Shown: positions 6,140 through 14,683 of the stretch, piece by piece
Position numbering within the stretch: the first letter of the stretch is position 1
Layout of the letters: each line of letters starts with the position of its first letter
IMG/VR virus record: IMGVR_UViG_3300020470_004038
Coordinates: 1 to 23,300 of that record
Length of the DNA: 23,300 nucleotides
Direction: 5' to 3' (one strand)
Source: a virus
Program-made: the position numbers and the translations under genes
Notes under the pieces: model-generated
Seen by the model: the letters and a program-made list of their open reading frames with translations, nothing else
Told to the model about the DNA's origin: nothing
Databases searched by the model: none

Positions 6140-6146
6140 TATTTAT
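6140..6146 (-). promoter_or_regulatory. Late promoter motif for the gp4 cluster
   Basis: The minus strand reads ATAAATA here (in CATAAATAC), 33 nt before the gp4 ATG and overlapping the start codon of the tube-like gene on the other strand. With the plus-strand motif at 6107 it forms a facing pair of late-type boxes in a divergent region only 38 bp long. Confidence 0.45.
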
Positions 6147-6789
6147 GGCACCAGTAATACAAAGGTTCAAAATGAATGTTTTGAATAGAACTGACATTAC
6201 TAAACTGTCTTTAACAAATCAATACCAGGTAAATATTTCTGGAATTACAGGAGCACTTAGAGAGTATCTTCGCAGTTTCTATGGTGTTGATAATAATTAT
6301 TTAAATGGTGCGGTGGGCATAATGTGTTCTGAAGCTACTCTTCCTACCAGTTCATTTGCAACTGCAGAAGTTAAAGATAATTTTCAGGGTATAAATCAAC
6401 AATTTGCTCATACTAGAATGTATCTTGATAGTGATTTTACATTCTATATTGATAGAAATTATAATGTACTTAAATTTTTTGAAGGGTGGATGGATTATAT
6501 TTCGGGGGATAATACGGTAGATGGTGTTACTAATATAGATAATCATAATTATTATCGTCGATTTAATTATCCTATGCAATCAAATGACACTGTAGGATAT
6601 AAATGTGGAACGTTAACAATTGCCAAATTTGATAGGAACTATGAGAAAAGTGTGGGATATGAGTTTATAAATGCATTTCCTAAAGCTATGACATCGATTC
6701 CAGTGTCTTATGGAGATGCCGATATATTGAAAGTAACTGTTCAATTTGCTTATGATCGTTATATAATGGGAGGTTTAAGTCCAAGTTAG
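6145..6789 (+). CDS. Tail tube gp19-family protein (gp54-like tube initiator candidate)
   Basis: A 214-residue protein with features of the T4 gp19 tail-tube family: an early segment LTNQYQVNISGI, a central CSEATLPTSSFATAEVKDNFQGINQQFAHTR (here the typical LP.SS...E..G..Q..A..R pattern), then FTFYIDRNYNVLKFFEGWMDYISG and the ending LKVTVQFAYDRY. These are the strands and insertion loop used by tube proteins to form hexameric rings. The major tube gene normally sits with the sheath gene elsewhere. A family member here, beside gp48 and gp26, is more likely the tube initiator that plays the gp54 role on top of the hub. The choice between gp19 and gp54 is inference from position. AAGG precedes the ATG by 5 nt. 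Confidence 0.8.
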   Translation: MAPVIQRFKMNVLNRTDITKLSLTNQYQVNISGITGALREYLRSFYGVDNNYLNGAVGIMCSEATLPTSSFATAEVKDNFQGINQQFAHTRMYLDSDFTFYIDRNYNVLKFFEGWMDYISGDNTVDGVTNIDNHNYYRRFNYPMQSNDTVGYKCGTLTIAKFDRNYEKSVGYEFINAFPKAMTSIPVSYGDADILKVTVQFAYDRYIMGGLSPS

Positions 6790-6824: not shown

Positions 6825-7547
6825 ATGCCTTTACCACAAATATCTGCTCCGACCTATGAGTTGGTATTACCGTCGAGTAATAAAAAGATTAAATATAGAC
6901 CTTTTTTAGTTAAAGAGGAAAAGATTCTAATCATGGCATTAGAATCAGAAGATACTAAACAAATTACTAATGCAATTAAAACTGTTATTGGAAATTGTGT
7001 TTTATCGAGAGGTATTAAAGTTGAAAAATTAGCAACTTTTGATATTGAATATTTGTTCTTAAATGTTCGTGCCAAGTCTGTTGGTGAGACAGTGGAAGTG
7101 AATGTAACATGTCCAGATGATGGTGAGACGCAGGTTCCTGTTGAAATTGATATTGATTCAATTAAAGTTCAGAAAAATCCTAAACATTCGAATGTTATAA
7201 AATTGGATGATAATTTGTCCGTACAAATGCAATATCCATCATTAACACAGTTTATTGAATCTAATTTTGATATAGACCCTCAAAAGAGTCAAGTGGATGA
7301 ATCATTGAATGTAATTATGTCTTGTATTAAGCAAGTATATAATGAAGAGGAAGCATGGGATGCTACAGAATGTACTAAGAAAGAATTAAAGGATTTTGTG
7401 GAACAAATGAACTCTAAACAGTTTAAGGATATTGAATCATTTTTTGATACGATGCCTAAACTTTCTCATACTCTTAAGGTAACTAATCCCAAAACTAAAG
7501 TGGAAAGCGAAGTTGTAATTGAGGGCCTTGCATCTTTTTTCAACTAG
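6825..7547 (+). CDS. gp26: gp26-like baseplate hub / assembly chaperone
   Basis: A 240-residue protein of the T4 baseplate protein family (gp26). Typical parts are the N-terminal YELVLPSSNKKIKYRPFLVKEEKILIMALES, the segment FDIEYLFLNVRAKSVGE, two Cys (VTCPDDGE and MSCIKQVY) and the C-terminal region with FVEQMNSKQFKDIESFFDTMPKL. T4 gp26 (208 aa) is needed to build the central hub. By size, charge and position ahead of candidate tape-measure genes, this family resembles the tail-assembly chaperones of other phages. The zero frame ends at TAG (7545-7547). Just before it, T TTT TTC at 7535-7541 can slip by -1 into a conserved-looking reading frame, giving a 301-residue fusion with the gp51-like tail. 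Confidence 0.85.
   Translation: MPLPQISAPTYELVLPSSNKKIKYRPFLVKEEKILIMALESEDTKQITNAIKTVIGNCVLSRGIKVEKLATFDIEYLFLNVRAKSVGETVEVNVTCPDDGETQVPVEIDIDSIKVQKNPKHSNVIKLDDNLSVQMQYPSLTQFIESNFDIDPQKSQVDESLNVIMSCIKQVYNEEEAWDATECTKKELKDFVEQMNSKQFKDIESFFDTMPKLSHTLKVTNPKTKVESEVVIEGLASFFN
7521..7547 (+). promoter_or_regulatory. Programmed -1 frameshift site in gp26
   Basis: The heptamer T TTT TTC (7535-7541) is in the correct frame for tandem slippage (codons TTT and TTC, both Phe). A Shine-Dalgarno-like GAGGG (7521-7525) lies 9 nt upstream, as in the dnaX frameshift cassette. The zero-frame stop TAG follows after one sense codon. The -1 frame opens just upstream, after a TGA at 7520-7522, and stays open to 7729. 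Only a weak hairpin (AGC/GCT around 7546-7555) is seen downstream. Confidence 0.7.
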
Positions 7548-7729
7548 CCCTGGCTCATGAAAGTTTGGAAAATTATTATAGAACAAACTTTGCTTTGATC
7601 CAGCACCATAAATATAGCTTAACAGAGTTAGAAAATATGATTCCGTGGGAAAGAGAGATTTACATTTCACTTCTCCAGCAATATATTGAAGAAGAAAATT
7701 TAAAACAGCAACAACAAAGTGGCATTTAA
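7541..7729 (+). CDS. gp51: gp51-like reading frame, -1 extension of gp26
   Basis: From 7541 this frame encodes 62 residues, QLALAHESLENYYRTNFALI, then QHHKYSLTELENMIPWEREIY, and a Glu/Gln-rich end. The SLTELENMIPWEREIY part is a helical signature found in the C-terminal parts of frameshifted tail-assembly chaperones and in gp51-type proteins of T4-like phages. There is no usable start: the first ATG (7637) lies inside the conserved motif and would leave 30 residues, and no Shine-Dalgarno precedes any GTG or TTG candidate. It is therefore best read as the tail of a gp26-gp51 fusion made by -1 frameshifting at 7535-7541. In T4, gp51 is a separate, non-structural factor essential for hub assembly. 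A start at an unusual codon after reinitiation near the TAG remains possible. Confidence 0.75.
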   Translation, partial: QLALAHESLENYYRTNFALIQHHKYSLTELENMIPWEREIYISLLQQYIEEENLKQQQQSGI

Positions 7730-9035
7730 GTCGATTTTCAAAACTAAATCTTTAGTACCGAAGATAACTAAAATTTCTTCTTCAATTTTTGGTCGTCGTT
7801 CAACTCCTACTCCTATATTAACACCTTCGGGTACACCAGTTTCTGAAACATTAGTTGAAACTAATAGGATTTTAGAGGAAATACAAAAGCAATTAACTTT
7901 AGATTTTGCCTATAGAATTGCCAAAGAAGAAGATGAAATAAAGACTATTAGAAAAAATACTGCCATTATGAAAGGTGGTAAAATAGGTGGTGGGGAAAAA
8001 GATACTAAATTAGGTGGAGGTATTGGTAAAGTATTTCAGACTGTTACTGCTCCTGTAAAGGGTGTCTTTAGTAGAATATTAGGATTTTTTGGATGGTTAG
8101 GAGCAGGGTTTATTGTTAATAAAGGATTAAAATGGTTATCTGATAATCCAGAGAGAATAGATAAAATTGTTAATTTTGTATCCAAACATTGGAAATTAAT
8201 TGCAGGTTTAGTTGTCGGGGGAGTAATACTTAATACCGTTGCCAATCTTATAGGAACAATTTCTCTCTTAAAGGGAGCTCTTGGATTACTTGGTATTGGT
8301 GCAGGTGCAAAAGGTGCAGTTGCTGCTGGAAATAAAACAGGATTCTTCACTAAACTTTCTAGGAGGGGTGTAACAACTACTAAGACAGGTACTAGGTTCA
8401 GTGGAATGCCTGGTACTAGTCCTAAAATTACACAATTCAGTAGAACAAAAACTCCTGTATCAAGATTCTTACAAAAACAGAGGGTTACATCTAAGTTACT
8501 GGGACGTAATTTGAGATTACCCAAAACAAGAATAGGAGGGGGATTATTTTCTATTTTAATGGGTGGTTTGGAATATAAAGGTAGATTGGATGAAGGTCAA
8601 AGTCATTTGCAAGCAGGGTTGGGAACTGCTGGAACTATTGGTGGTGGAATGGCTGGTGCCAAAGGTGGAGCAATGGCAGGTGCTGCTATTGGTGCAATGT
8701 TTGGTGGTGTCGGTGCAGTTCCAGGAGCACTAATTGGTGGTTTGATTGGTGGTATTGGTGGATCTTGGTTAGGTGGAAGAGCTATGGATGCAGTATCTGG
8801 TGCTGATATGGGTAATCAATTATCTCAACAAGAACTAAACAGACATGAAAATCTTTTTCATAATACACAGAGGAGAAGTGGTAATGTTAGTATGATTAAT
8901 TTGGGAGAAACTACTGAGGGTGGTAGTGGATTTGGTCCTTCTGGAGACGCTGAAGTTGTCAGTACCTTCTCATCTGAGGATCTGGGTAATATAAGTGTAA
9001 ATTATATGAGAATGGAATTGGGGGTATATGTATAA
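7719..9035 (+). CDS. Gly-rich membrane-like structural protein A (tape-measure candidate)
   Basis: A 438-residue protein not assigned to a known T4 gene. The N-terminus is basic. Residues about 44-85 are a charged helix (ETNRILEEIQKQL), and a segment RILGFFGWLGAGFIVNKGLKWL with a second hydrophobic helix WKLIAGLVVGGVILNTVANLIG follows at about 115-190. Residues about 295-360 are a long Gly/Ala stretch with spaced Gly (AGAAIGAMFGGVGAVPGALIG) like a glycine zipper. Such hydrophobic Gly-rich helices are usual in tape-measure proteins, which are released into the host membrane, and the gene follows the chaperone-like gp26/gp51 as tape-measure genes often do. The start is GTG (7719), overlapping the gp51-like frame by 11 nt with no clear Shine-Dalgarno. 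The next in-frame ATG is about 80 codons further in. Confidence 0.7.
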   Translation: MAFKSIFKTKSLVPKITKISSSIFGRRSTPTPILTPSGTPVSETLVETNRILEEIQKQLTLDFAYRIAKEEDEIKTIRKNTAIMKGGKIGGGEKDTKLGGGIGKVFQTVTAPVKGVFSRILGFFGWLGAGFIVNKGLKWLSDNPERIDKIVNFVSKHWKLIAGLVVGGVILNTVANLIGTISLLKGALGLLGIGAGAKGAVAAGNKTGFFTKLSRRGVTTTKTGTRFSGMPGTSPKITQFSRTKTPVSRFLQKQRVTSKLLGRNLRLPKTRIGGGLFSILMGGLEYKGRLDEGQSHLQAGLGTAGTIGGGMAGAKGGAMAGAAIGAMFGGVGAVPGALIGGLIGGIGGSWLGGRAMDAVSGADMGNQLSQQELNRHENLFHNTQRRSGNVSMINLGETTEGGSGFGPSGDAEVVSTFSSEDLGNISVNYMRMELGVYV

Positions 9036-11347: not shown

Positions 11348-11995
11348 ATGAATAATTCTTTTGCTTCTGATAGTTTTTATGGGTTAGGAACTCACGAATG
11401 GATTGGAACGGTGCTTCCTTATGCATCTCAAGAAAATCAGCAAAATGGTATGGCAGGTTTTGGTATTCGTAGAAGAGTTGCCATTATGGGATATCATCCT
11501 TCTGATATTTCTCAAATACCTGATGATCAAATTGTATTTGCTTTAGTTGCTCTTCCACCGACTGCGGGCTCTGGAGCAGCTGGTAGAAAAATGAGTGTGA
11601 GATTAACTCAAGGTGATGTAGTTCTTGGAAAGTTTTTAGATGGAAATGCAAAACAAAATCCTGTTATTTTGCATGTTTTAGGAAGAACTCAAAATGCCAA
11701 ATTTCAATCTGGTAGATACGGTCTTAAAACTGGATTTGTGGGTTCATCTAAACAAACTAACTTAAATCCACCTAATCCAGGTGACGGTACTCCTTCACAA
11801 GAATTTAATGCAGATACTCCTGAAGGAACCCCTAGTGCCATTAAAACTGCAAATAAATCTAATAAAAGTTCTAGCAATGCACAAAGATTAATGAAAAAGG
11901 GTGGATTGGTTGGTGGTACAGTAGGTGTATTAAAAAGTAAGGCTAAAAATGCTGCTGGTTCCTTGATTAAAAAGACGATCACAGGTCTATTCTAA
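11348..11995 (+). CDS. gp5: gp5 N-terminal-like OB-fold spike protein (no lysozyme domain)
   Basis: A 215-residue protein. Residues about 17-115 look like the OB-fold of gp5/gpV/VgrG spike proteins: HEWIGTVLPY, RVAIMGYHPSDISQIPDDQIVFALVALPP, then GDVVLGKFLDGNAKQNPVILHVLGRT. This domain binds the gp27 ring in T4. After it comes a Pro/Asn/Ser-rich linker (about 130-180) and a basic Gly-rich end (GGLVGGTVGVLKSKAKNAAG). T4 gp5 (575 aa) continues into a lysozyme domain and a beta-helix needle; both are absent here. The needle seems to be encoded separately at 14686-15351. It follows the gp27-like gene after 6 nt, as partner genes should. Its stop codon overlaps a CTAAATA motif. Confidence 0.75.
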   Translation: MNNSFASDSFYGLGTHEWIGTVLPYASQENQQNGMAGFGIRRRVAIMGYHPSDISQIPDDQIVFALVALPPTAGSGAAGRKMSVRLTQGDVVLGKFLDGNAKQNPVILHVLGRTQNAKFQSGRYGLKTGFVGSSKQTNLNPPNPGDGTPSQEFNADTPEGTPSAIKTANKSNKSSSNAQRLMKKGGLVGGTVGVLKSKAKNAAGSLIKKTITGLF

Positions 11996-12019: not shown

Positions 12020-14683
12020 ATGGCAGAATCAGTCCCACAGTGGAAACAAGACTTACTAAAAGAAGCAGAACAAAAAGATAGGAGTAATGAATTTCTTGTT
12101 AGGGTTTTAAATGATAAACAAGAACCATTAAATAGGCAAGCAGCTGCTTTTGCGGTTCCTGTCGTTGTATGGGGAGTTAAAAGTTTAGCTGCTGCAATTC
12201 TTGCTGTAGGGACATATGAAGCCGGTAGAAGATATTTAAACAATGGTAAAGTATTCACTAATGGTACGGAGGTGTATAGTGATAGAGAAATTGAAGCATT
12301 ACTTGACGATCCTAATTTTTGGAGGCAACCATCTTCGGATATAGATTCTTCTCCATCTTCTACTGATGCTACTTCTGCTGCTACTTCTGAAACAGTTTCT
12401 CCTATAACTACAGTTAATCCTTTAGATACTACTACGTCTTCGGAGACAGTAGTTGAATCAACTTCATCTCCTGATGCAACTGTAGTTTCATCTTCTACAA
12501 GTACTCAAACAGTTAATGATGAACAATTAAGAGCTGCCGTTCCATTTATTATTGCTTTTGATCTCATACAATCTCCTGTAAAAAAAGAGAAGATTCAATT
12601 TATAATTGATAATTATGCAGATAATCCTATTATTGCAGAAGCTCTTAATACACCACTGGATAGTCTTCCTGCTACTAATAGAGAGGCCATTCTTACAGAA
12701 GTTAATGAGTCTTTAGAGTATCAGAATACAGGGCCTAATATAAGAATAGAAGAGGGTACTATTGACGGGGTTACTGAAATACCTAATGTAGTTAGAGGTC
12801 CCAATACAAGAGTGGTTACTCCTGACGGGACTATTTTTGTCAATCCTGCTAATCCCGATGATGTAACTAGGGGAAGAGGGATTAATGTACCCCAACCTCG
12901 TGTTGATACAACTGATTTGGAGTATCCCACTACAGGAACGGGTACTGAAGTGATTGATCAGGCTGATCAGATTCAATCTGAACTTATTTCTCAGGCGGTT
13001 ACAACCAGTGAGGTAGTAAGTCAAGAATCTATATTAACGCAGGTAAATAAACAATTACCACGAAATAATCATATTCCTGACAGTACAGTAACAGGACGTG
13101 ACATTACACAAGCTGATCCTTGCAGAGATAATACTTTAGATGAGGTATCAAGTCAAATTGAAAATTTATTTAATATGATTAATGGGCCAGGAAGTGCTAT
13201 TTTAAATCTACCACAAGCAATTAAAGATGCTTCGGGAATGATAGGTAGATCTATGAATAAATTTGTCAATAAAATGACCACTGCTCTAAGTCAAAAATTA
13301 GAAAAGATGATTTCGGGTGGATTTCAGACTTTAGCTTCTGGTATAATGGCTCAAGTTTCTAAGGCATTTCCGATGACCGCAGCAATTGCGAAGATTACTG
13401 GTATTCAGGATGCTTTATTAAGTCCTATTAAAGCTTTGTTTGACGGTATTTTTTGTGCTTCATCTAGAATTTCTGCTACCATACCAAATATTGCTGCAGA
13501 TTTGCTTACTGGAGCAGTAGATAATCTTCTTAATGTTCCTATTTGTGCTGTTGAGCAAATGATAGGTGGAATGGTTACTAAAATTGCTAGTATGGCTGAT
13601 TCTTTAGTAGGCCCTCTTTTAGGACCTATTTCAAAGGTATTGGGTGTTGCTATGAATGTTAAAGATTTTATGCTTGATGGTATAGATTTACTTAAGAAGG
13701 TTGGTGGATTTTTCTCATGTGGAGAAAAGCAAGATTGTCCTACAAGTAGCGTTTATAAAAATACTGTAGGACAACAAAAAGATAGGTCAGAGTCATCTAA
13801 TAAAAAGAGTTGGGGAAATGTTTTTAGAGGAGCAGCAAATGCCTCAGTGAATATTGCTACTGGTACACTTGGTGTAGTAGGTGATGTTGCAGAGGTTGGT
13901 AGTGAAATATTGGAACCATTGAATACACCTGGTGCTCTCAATACATTATCTGGTGCATCTCTTGTAGGAGGAGCATCTAGTGTAACTACTGCATTTGAGG
14001 AAAGTTATGGAAAATGGAGTATTTTTGGACAAAAATTATCAGATGTAGAAGAAACTCCTACAGATTGTAATACTGGTAATATATTTGAGTGTGGATTACC
14101 TAAAGTAGAATTTTTTGGGGGTGAAGGTATAGGAGGAGTAGGAAAGGCTATTCTTGGTGGAGTGAAGGCAGAGTTCAATTTTGATGATATATATGGAGAT
14201 GTGAAGAGAACCGCAAGTATTGTTGGAATAGAGATGGAAGATAGAGGTAGTGGATATACATCTCCTCCTATTGTAACTCTTACTGATAACTGTGATAGAG
14301 GATATGGTGCTTATGCGAAGGCACATATAGATCAAAATCCATATTCACCTACTTATGGTGAGATTTTAAGTGTATCTATGATTACTGTTGGTGAAAATTA
14401 TCCTGCAGAAGAGGAACCAGTTCCATTATATATTAGTGGAGTTGTTATTGATAATCCAGGAGAAGGATATGAAGAGGGAGATACTTTAGATAACTTTGAT
14501 TTGACTATTGTAGATGGTAGAATAGAAAGTGTTGATATTGTTAATAGGTTAGCTTACTCTGGTTTACCTGAACTAAATATTAATACTAATCTAGGTTTTG
14601 GTGCAGTGCTTCGACCTTTAATGTCTAAAACTAGACCTCAAGGTGATGTACTTGAAGTTATTGATTGTGTTGGGAAGGTTTAA
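12020..14683 (+). CDS. Large baseplate/virion protein with membrane segment, unknown
   Basis: An 887-residue protein I cannot name. A charged start (about 1-40) is followed by a hydrophobic segment AFAVPVVVWGVKSLAAAILAV (about 43-63) and a Ser/Thr-rich low-complexity linker (about 104-165). A helical region at about 385-575 is rich in Ala, Gly and Met, with many mild hydrophobic helices and paired Cys (CASSR, PICAVEQM, CGEKQDC). The C-terminal part from about 730 has strands with DRGSGYTSPPIVTLTD and GEILSVSMITVGENYP, a module also seen in the next large gene. It is preceded by the best Shine-Dalgarno in the window (AGGAGG, 9 nt before ATG) and a late promoter motif, so it should be made in quantity. 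It lies between the OB-fold and beta-helix spike genes, which suggests a hub-associated or membrane-contacting protein. Tape-measure function is also possible. Confidence 0.7.
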   Translation: MAESVPQWKQDLLKEAEQKDRSNEFLVRVLNDKQEPLNRQAAAFAVPVVVWGVKSLAAAILAVGTYEAGRRYLNNGKVFTNGTEVYSDREIEALLDDPNFWRQPSSDIDSSPSSTDATSAATSETVSPITTVNPLDTTTSSETVVESTSSPDATVVSSSTSTQTVNDEQLRAAVPFIIAFDLIQSPVKKEKIQFIIDNYADNPIIAEALNTPLDSLPATNREAILTEVNESLEYQNTGPNIRIEEGTIDGVTEIPNVVRGPNTRVVTPDGTIFVNPANPDDVTRGRGINVPQPRVDTTDLEYPTTGTGTEVIDQADQIQSELISQAVTTSEVVSQESILTQVNKQLPRNNHIPDSTVTGRDITQADPCRDNTLDEVSSQIENLFNMINGPGSAILNLPQAIKDASGMIGRSMNKFVNKMTTALSQKLEKMISGGFQTLASGIMAQVSKAFPMTAAIAKITGIQDALLSPIKALFDGIFCASSRISATIPNIAADLLTGAVDNLLNVPICAVEQMIGGMVTKIASMADSLVGPLLGPISKVLGVAMNVKDFMLDGIDLLKKVGGFFSCGEKQDCPTSSVYKNTVGQQKDRSESSNKKSWGNVFRGAANASVNIATGTLGVVGDVAEVGSEILEPLNTPGALNTLSGASLVGGASSVTTAFEESYGKWSIFGQKLSDVEETPTDCNTGNIFECGLPKVEFFGGEGIGGVGKAILGGVKAEFNFDDIYGDVKRTASIVGIEMEDRGSGYTSPPIVTLTDNCDRGYGAYAKAHIDQNPYSPTYGEILSVSMITVGENYPAEEEPVPLYISGVVIDNPGEGYEEGDTLDNFDLTIVDGRIESVDIVNRLAYSGLPELNINTNLGFGAVLRPLMSKTRPQGDVLEVIDCVGKV

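What the first reader, a model, noticed from the sequence alone, without database searches (positions are those of the whole stretch)
7521..7729. Probable programmed -1 frameshift joining gp26 to a gp51-like tail
T TTT TTC at 7535-7541 is a canonical X-XXY-YYZ slippery heptamer in the gp26 frame, one sense codon before its TAG. The -1 frame is open only from 7523 to the TAA at 7727-7729, has no usable start, and encodes a tail with the motif SLTELENMIPWEREIY. A Shine-Dalgarno-like GAGGG lies 9 nt upstream, as in the dnaX cassette. The fusion would be 301 aa against 240 aa for gp26. Programmed frameshifting is well known in tail-assembly chaperone genes of lambda-like and many other tailed phages. 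T4 makes gp26 and gp51 as separate genes, and I am not sure the fusion has been described for T4-like cyanophages. If real, gp26/gp51 is the T4-type counterpart of the G/GT chaperone pair.
Basis: partly seen in the sequence, partly recalled or inferred. Interest (0 to 1): 0.72.

Follow-up and report, generated by a model that had tools for sequence, protein, structure and literature searches.

The report
Cyanophage tail-chaperone frameshift site (gp26/gp51)
This marine virus probably makes a short and a longer version of one tail-building helper protein from a single gene by having ribosomes slip back one base at a run of T's; the signal is real and widely conserved, but this arrangement was already published for T4-like phages in 2022.

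Summary
Confirmed. T TTT TTC at 7535-7541 lies in the gp26 frame (6825-7547), and a -1 frame open from 7523 to TAA 7727-7729 carries the gp51-like tail without a usable start. The phase-correct T6 site occurs in 138 of 141 distinct gp26 loci with a complete 3' end and in 72 of 74 sequence clusters. It persists when the second Phe codon becomes Leu, and in GC-rich phages that otherwise use TTC. The -1 tail is under purifying selection (median dN/dS 0.12). RNA folding strength peaks 5 nt downstream, and an SD-like GAGGG is enriched upstream. T4 gp26 and gp51 are paralogues: T4 gp51 is a gp26-like domain plus this tail, so T4 makes the short and long forms from two genes. The predicted gp26 fold matches the HK97 tail assembly chaperone (Z 8.0). 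It is not new as a kind: Vladimirov, Gautam & Davidson (Virology 2022) reported frameshifted tail assembly chaperones in T4-like phages and separate genes in T4 (cited in PMC10885494 and PMC12846349). A possible extension is that Ackermannviridae keep the -1 tail behind a different site, N NTT TTY.

The parts
6145..6789 (+). tail tube protein gene, upstream neighbour
   Evidence: phrog_45 tail tube, E 2.2e-35
6825..7547 (+). gp26 = short tail assembly chaperone (TAC-N, G-like), 240 aa
   Evidence: PF12322 E 5.4e-74; phrog_150 E 7e-80; fold match to HK97 TAC 2OB9 Z 8.0 over residues 1-86
7521..7525 (+). Shine-Dalgarno-like GAGGG, 9 nt before the heptamer
   Evidence: GAGGG/GAAGGG enriched at this Glu-Gly pair compared with other Glu-Gly pairs of gp26, Fisher p 6e-6
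7535..7541 (+). slippery heptamer T TTT TTC
   Evidence: phase-conserved T TTT TTN in 72/74 clusters and 138/141 distinct loci
7545..7547 (+). zero-frame TAG that ends gp26, one sense codon after the heptamer
7550..7603 (+). predicted stem-loop downstream of the slip site, possible stimulator
   Evidence: MFE -14 kcal/mol, z -2.3; mean z -1.5 peak at this place over 71 clusters; no shared consensus fold
7541..7729 (+). -1 frame tail = gp51-like TAC-C domain (62 aa after the slip), TAA at 7727-7729; frame open from 7523
   Evidence: phrog_634 baseplate hub assembly catalyst E 1.8e-29; tail always in -1 in relatives; dN/dS 0.12
7719..9035 (+). candidate tape measure protein gene, downstream neighbour (GTG start overlaps the end of the tail)
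   Evidence: only weak matches to tape measure PHROGs; the gene in this region is annotated as tape measure in Cr30 and HTVC008M, after one small gene

Best explanation
gp26 is the tail assembly chaperone of this T4-type cyanophage. Most ribosomes read gp26 to its TAG and make the 240-aa short form (TAC-N, like lambda gpG). A fraction, with P- and A-site tRNAs on TTT and TTC at 7536-7541, slip back one base and read on in the -1 frame to TAA 7727-7729. They make a 301-aa long form (TAC-NC, like lambda gpGT) whose last 62 residues are the gp51 domain. By analogy with lambda, the common domain coats the tape measure protein and the extra domain recruits tail tube protein, and neither stays in the virion. 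Shown here: sequence anatomy, conservation, selection, folding peak, homology, fold resemblance. Inferred: the slippage itself, its efficiency, and the chaperone action.
For: Heptamer in slippery phase in 138/141 distinct loci and tail in the -1 frame, 72/74 clusters. TTT at the site even in ACP17, which has 0 TTT among 12 other Phe codons, and in phiM12 and Mendera; the heptamer is kept when the second codon is Leu TTA/TTG. No -1 stop between slip site and tail, median 64 codons open against 7 in +1; dN/dS 0.12. Downstream folding peak, mean z -1.5, 51% of clusters below -1.5. SD-like enrichment p 6e-6. T4 and a Campylobacter phage have two PF12322 genes, a short one and a long one with the tail; frameshift-type phages have one. 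Fold: 2OB9 HK97 TAC Z 8.0, 3FGX Z 8.0, 3KLU YqbN Z 7.2. Order tail tube - gp26 - tail - tape measure candidate. Literature: PMC10885494 and PMC12846349 citing Vladimirov et al. 2022.
Against: No trans-frame peptide, ribosome profiling or reporter test. No conserved consensus RNA structure. About a third of clusters have an ATG two or three codons after the slip site, so separate translation of the tail cannot be excluded there. VAP7 and K355-like Vibrio phages lack the canonical heptamer and have a stop-start overlap. GenBank annotates gp51 as a separate gene.
Confidence: 0.93

Rival explanations
1. The tail is translated as its own small protein (gp51) by reinitiation or an internal start after the gp26 stop, as GenBank annotates.
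For: P-SSM2 gp51 is annotated from an ATG just after gp26; 20 of 72 clusters have an ATG at codon 3 and 4 at codon 2 after the slip; VAP7, K355, K475 have TAATG.
Against: The window and many relatives have no ATG before the conserved motif and no well-placed Shine-Dalgarno; it does not explain the synonymous conservation of T TTT TTN in phase; the homologous T4 gp51 carries the gp26-like domain in the same chain.
Confidence: 0.04
2. RNA polymerase slippage on the T6 run, not ribosome slippage, makes mRNAs that encode the fusion.
For: The run is homopolymeric; adding one U would also give the -1 frame.
Against: The run stays at 6 in 114 of 138 loci and is always in X-XXY-YYZ phase, which polymerase slippage would not require; distant relatives with only four or five T's keep the same -1 relation.
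Confidence: 0.02
3. A sequencing or assembly indel in the poly-T run splits one gene.
For: Homopolymers are error-prone; one IMG/VR record (L100) has five T's where its near-identical relative has six.
Against: The same frame relation is seen in 138 distinct loci from isolates and metagenomes.
Confidence: 0.005

Closest known systems
Tail assembly chaperones of T4-like phages (Vladimirov, Gautam & Davidson 2022, Virology 566:9-15, doi 10.1016/j.virol.2021.11.003)
   Same: Short form plus frameshifted long form with a polyT slip site; T4 uses a short gene and a longer fused gene (as paraphrased in PMC12846349 and PMC10885494).
   Different: Nothing in principle. The paper is not held in the library, so I could not check whether this clade or the Ackermannviridae are covered.
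Lambda gpG/gpGT
   Same: Two-form chaperone, -1 slip near the end of the first gene, position between tail tube and tape measure genes, similar N-terminal fold to the HK97 counterpart gp13 (2OB9).
   Different: No sequence similarity; gp26 is longer (240 aa) with an extra C-terminal half; the slip site is T TTT TTC (lambda uses G GGA AAG, from my knowledge).
P2 gpE/gpE+E' and Vandenendeviridae Adele TAC
   Same: Myovirus tail assembly chaperone with a -1 slip; Adele has an invariant GTTTTT motif (PMC12846349).
   Different: Different protein families; the Adele-type motif resembles the non-canonical sites of Ackermannviridae seen here rather than the window's.
E. coli dnaX frameshift cassette
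   Same: Upstream SD-like element, heptamer, downstream stem-loop.
   Different: A AAA AAG heptamer; a function other than tail assembly.

Membership tests
Programmed -1 ribosomal frameshift (tandem slippage) | X XXY YYZ heptamer in the zero frame | tested here: met
   T TTT TTC 7535-7541
Programmed -1 ribosomal frameshift (tandem slippage) | site conserved beyond protein constraint | tested here: met
Programmed -1 ribosomal frameshift (tandem slippage) | -1 ORF conserved, under selection, without own start | tested here: met
   for the window and its clade; some clusters have an ATG nearby
Programmed -1 ribosomal frameshift (tandem slippage) | stimulators (upstream SD-like element, downstream structure) | tested here: inconclusive
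   statistical signals present, no conserved fold, function untested
Programmed -1 ribosomal frameshift (tandem slippage) | trans-frame protein detected | not testable with these tools
   needs reporter, proteomics or ribosome profiling
Tail assembly chaperone pair (TAC-N/TAC-NC) | gene between tail tube and tape measure genes | tested here: inconclusive
   tail tube upstream; tape measure only by weak matches and by annotation in Cr30 and HTVC008M
Tail assembly chaperone pair (TAC-N/TAC-NC) | short form plus C-terminally extended long form | tested here: met
   frame anatomy here; two genes (short and long) in T4 and a Campylobacter phage
Tail assembly chaperone pair (TAC-N/TAC-NC) | TAC-N fold | tested here: met
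   best structural matches are HK97 TAC 2OB9 and 3FGX, 3KLU (YqbN), Z 7.2-8.0 over residues 1-96 only; Foldseek alone was weak
Tail assembly chaperone pair (TAC-N/TAC-NC) | needed for tail assembly, absent from virion | not testable with these tools
   T4 gp51 is required but absent from the particle (PMC3004832)
PF12322 T4_baseplate (gp26 family) | profile match above cut-off | tested here: met
   249 bits, cut-off 24.5

The most novel reading that the evidence does not exclude
The same chaperone pair uses at least two further expression modes in relatives: Ackermannviridae, where T6 is replaced by a T7-gene-10-like site (A/G ATT TTC, G GTT TTC) with the -1 tail kept and often no start, and Vibrio K355/VAP7-type phages, where a similar NTTTTY site is combined with a TAATG stop-start overlap. 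Slippage class would then have switched within one orthologous gene.
Probability: 0.4. Interest if true: 0.45.

Novelty: new member of a known kind. Interest (0 to 1): 0.3.

Why it matters
It settles what the small 'gp51' of cyanophages most likely is: not a truncated T4 gp51 (Sullivan et al. 2010 noted that it lacks the first ~200 residues, PMC3037559) but the frameshift-added end of gp26. The GenBank records looked at here annotate it as a separate gene or miss it. It also explains why T4 has two paralogous hub-assembly chaperones.

Tried and rejected
A conserved downstream RNA fold: RNAalifold found none, although individual folds are strong. The search for related loci with the K355 gp26 found nothing, and with VAP7, Mendera and Cr30 it found few loci. 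The Vladimirov 2022 paper could not be read. Pfam found no named tape measure domain in the downstream genes. Sequencing error and polymerase slippage were considered and rejected on frame and phase conservation. L100 (+1 in the survey) is explained by a T5 instead of T6 run.

Full report
What is there. The gp26 ORF (6825-7547) ends TCT TTT TTC AAC TAG; T-TTT-TTC at 7535-7541 is a canonical slippery heptamer in its frame, and the -1 frame is open from 7523 to the TAA at 7727-7729. The tail matches phrog_634, baseplate hub assembly catalyst, E 1.8e-29; gp26 matches PF12322, E 5.4e-74, and phrog_150. Only a TTG (7565) precedes the conserved motif; the first ATG is inside it.

Conservation. Relatives were fetched from IMG/VR and phage records. 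In 138 of 141 distinct gp26 loci with a complete 3' end the T6 run is present and in X-XXY-YYZ phase; of 74 clusters at 85% identity, 72 have it, the two exceptions being VAP7 and K355. The tail is in -1 in essentially all. The first codon is always TTT, although 228 of 744 other Phe codons in these ORFs are TTC. The second codon varies among TTC, TTT, TTA and TTG, so the amino acid changes while the heptamer stays. In ACP17 (60% GC) no other gp26 Phe codon is TTT, yet the site is. T6 runs elsewhere in gp26 are in the slippery phase in only 7 of 70 cases. The tail evolves under purifying selection, median dN/dS 0.12 over 495 pairs, and the -1 frame stays open for a median of 64 codons against 7 for +1.

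Stimulators. Windows of 55 nt that start 5 nt after the heptamer fold better than shuffled sequence (mean z -1.5, 51% below -1.5) while windows elsewhere average about -0.3. The folds differ between phages; RNAalifold finds no consensus. The Glu-Gly codons upstream favour GAGGG/GAAGGG compared with other Glu-Gly pairs in gp26 (Fisher p 6e-6; pairs treated as independent). Both fit dnaX-like stimulators, but neither is tested functionally.

What it is. T4 gp26 and gp51 lie on opposite strands and are paralogues (BLASTP E 2e-6). PF12322 finds exactly these two genes in T4, and two in a Campylobacter phage, but one gene in the frameshift-type phages searched. T4 gp51 and the Campylobacter long protein end in the tail domain (tail HMM E 4e-8 and 2e-8). 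So T4 encodes the short and long forms separately, while the window's clade makes both from one gene. The AlphaFold model of gp26 (mean pLDDT 88.6) matches the HK97 tail assembly chaperone 2OB9 (Z 8.0, rmsd 3.9, 84 aligned), 3FGX (Z 8.0, rmsd 4.3, 86 aligned) and YqbN 3KLU (Z 7.2, rmsd 4.2, 86 aligned), all over the N-terminal ~90 residues. A Vibrio PICI protein (5IR0) follows at Z 5.1, then nothing above Z 2.8. Foldseek alone ranked 2OB9 second with a weak score. The gene lies between a tail tube gene and a gene that relatives annotate as tape measure, in those relatives after one small gene. All this fits the lambda G/GT system.

Novelty. The full-text library shows that this is published: Vladimirov, Gautam & Davidson 2022 identified the tail assembly chaperones of T4-like phages. 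PMC10885494 states that some T4-like phages carry one short gene and one longer fused gene instead of frameshifting. PMC12846349 states that polyT sequences are known -1 signals in TAC-N genes of T4-like phages. From memory, the abstract says frameshifting is conserved in several T4-like groups and that T4 itself uses separate genes; I could not open the paper. The earlier review PMC5009743 listed T4 as the exception, and Sullivan et al. noted the 'reduced' cyanophage gp51; the passages found give no frameshift explanation (PMC3037559).

Exceptions and extension. In Ackermannviridae (Marshall, phiMAM1, PP35 and 18 IMG/VR loci) the tail is again in -1 and unannotated in the three records opened, but the site is (A/G) ATT TTC or G GTT TTC; most have no start codon before the conserved part. 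VAP7, K355 and K475 have C GTT TTT, A CTT TTC and G CTT TTT plus TAATG. These resemble the T7 gene 10 site (my knowledge) and the Adele GTTTTT motif (PMC12846349). Whether this is described I could not establish; one literature search found no paper on it for Ackermannviridae.

Verdict. Observation and interpretation are right; ordinary in kind, with a useful annotation consequence.

Noticed in passing
L183:3286-3292 (Salmonella phage Marshall), L184, L185, L190-L207: Ackermannviridae keep the gp51-like tail in -1 after gp26, unannotated in the records opened, with A/G ATT TTC or G GTT TTC in place of the T6 heptamer and mostly no start codon.
   Followed up: partly
L088 (VAP7), L090 (K355), L189 (K475), end of gp26: Vibrio phages with NTT TTY plus a TAATG stop-start overlap; the tail may be made by reinitiation, slippage or both.
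   Followed up: partly
L188:3229-3411 (Aeromonas phage Aeh1): Aeh1 was reported to lack gp51 (PMC3037559), but the tail is there, unannotated, in -1 behind T TTT TTC.
   Followed up: yes
L096:2022-2762 and record MW074126 10393-11019: Campylobacter phage CJLB-14 has a short and a long gp26-family gene, like T4: a second case of two genes instead of frameshifting.
   Followed up: partly
L100, around 2247: A Stenotrophomonas phage record with five T's where its near-identical relative has six; probably a homopolymer error, but it would break the slip site.
   Followed up: no
window 11348-11995 and 12020-14683: The gp5-like hub/lysozyme family (phrog_1922) is split over two genes: profile positions 20-182 in the first, 183-652 in the second.
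   Followed up: no
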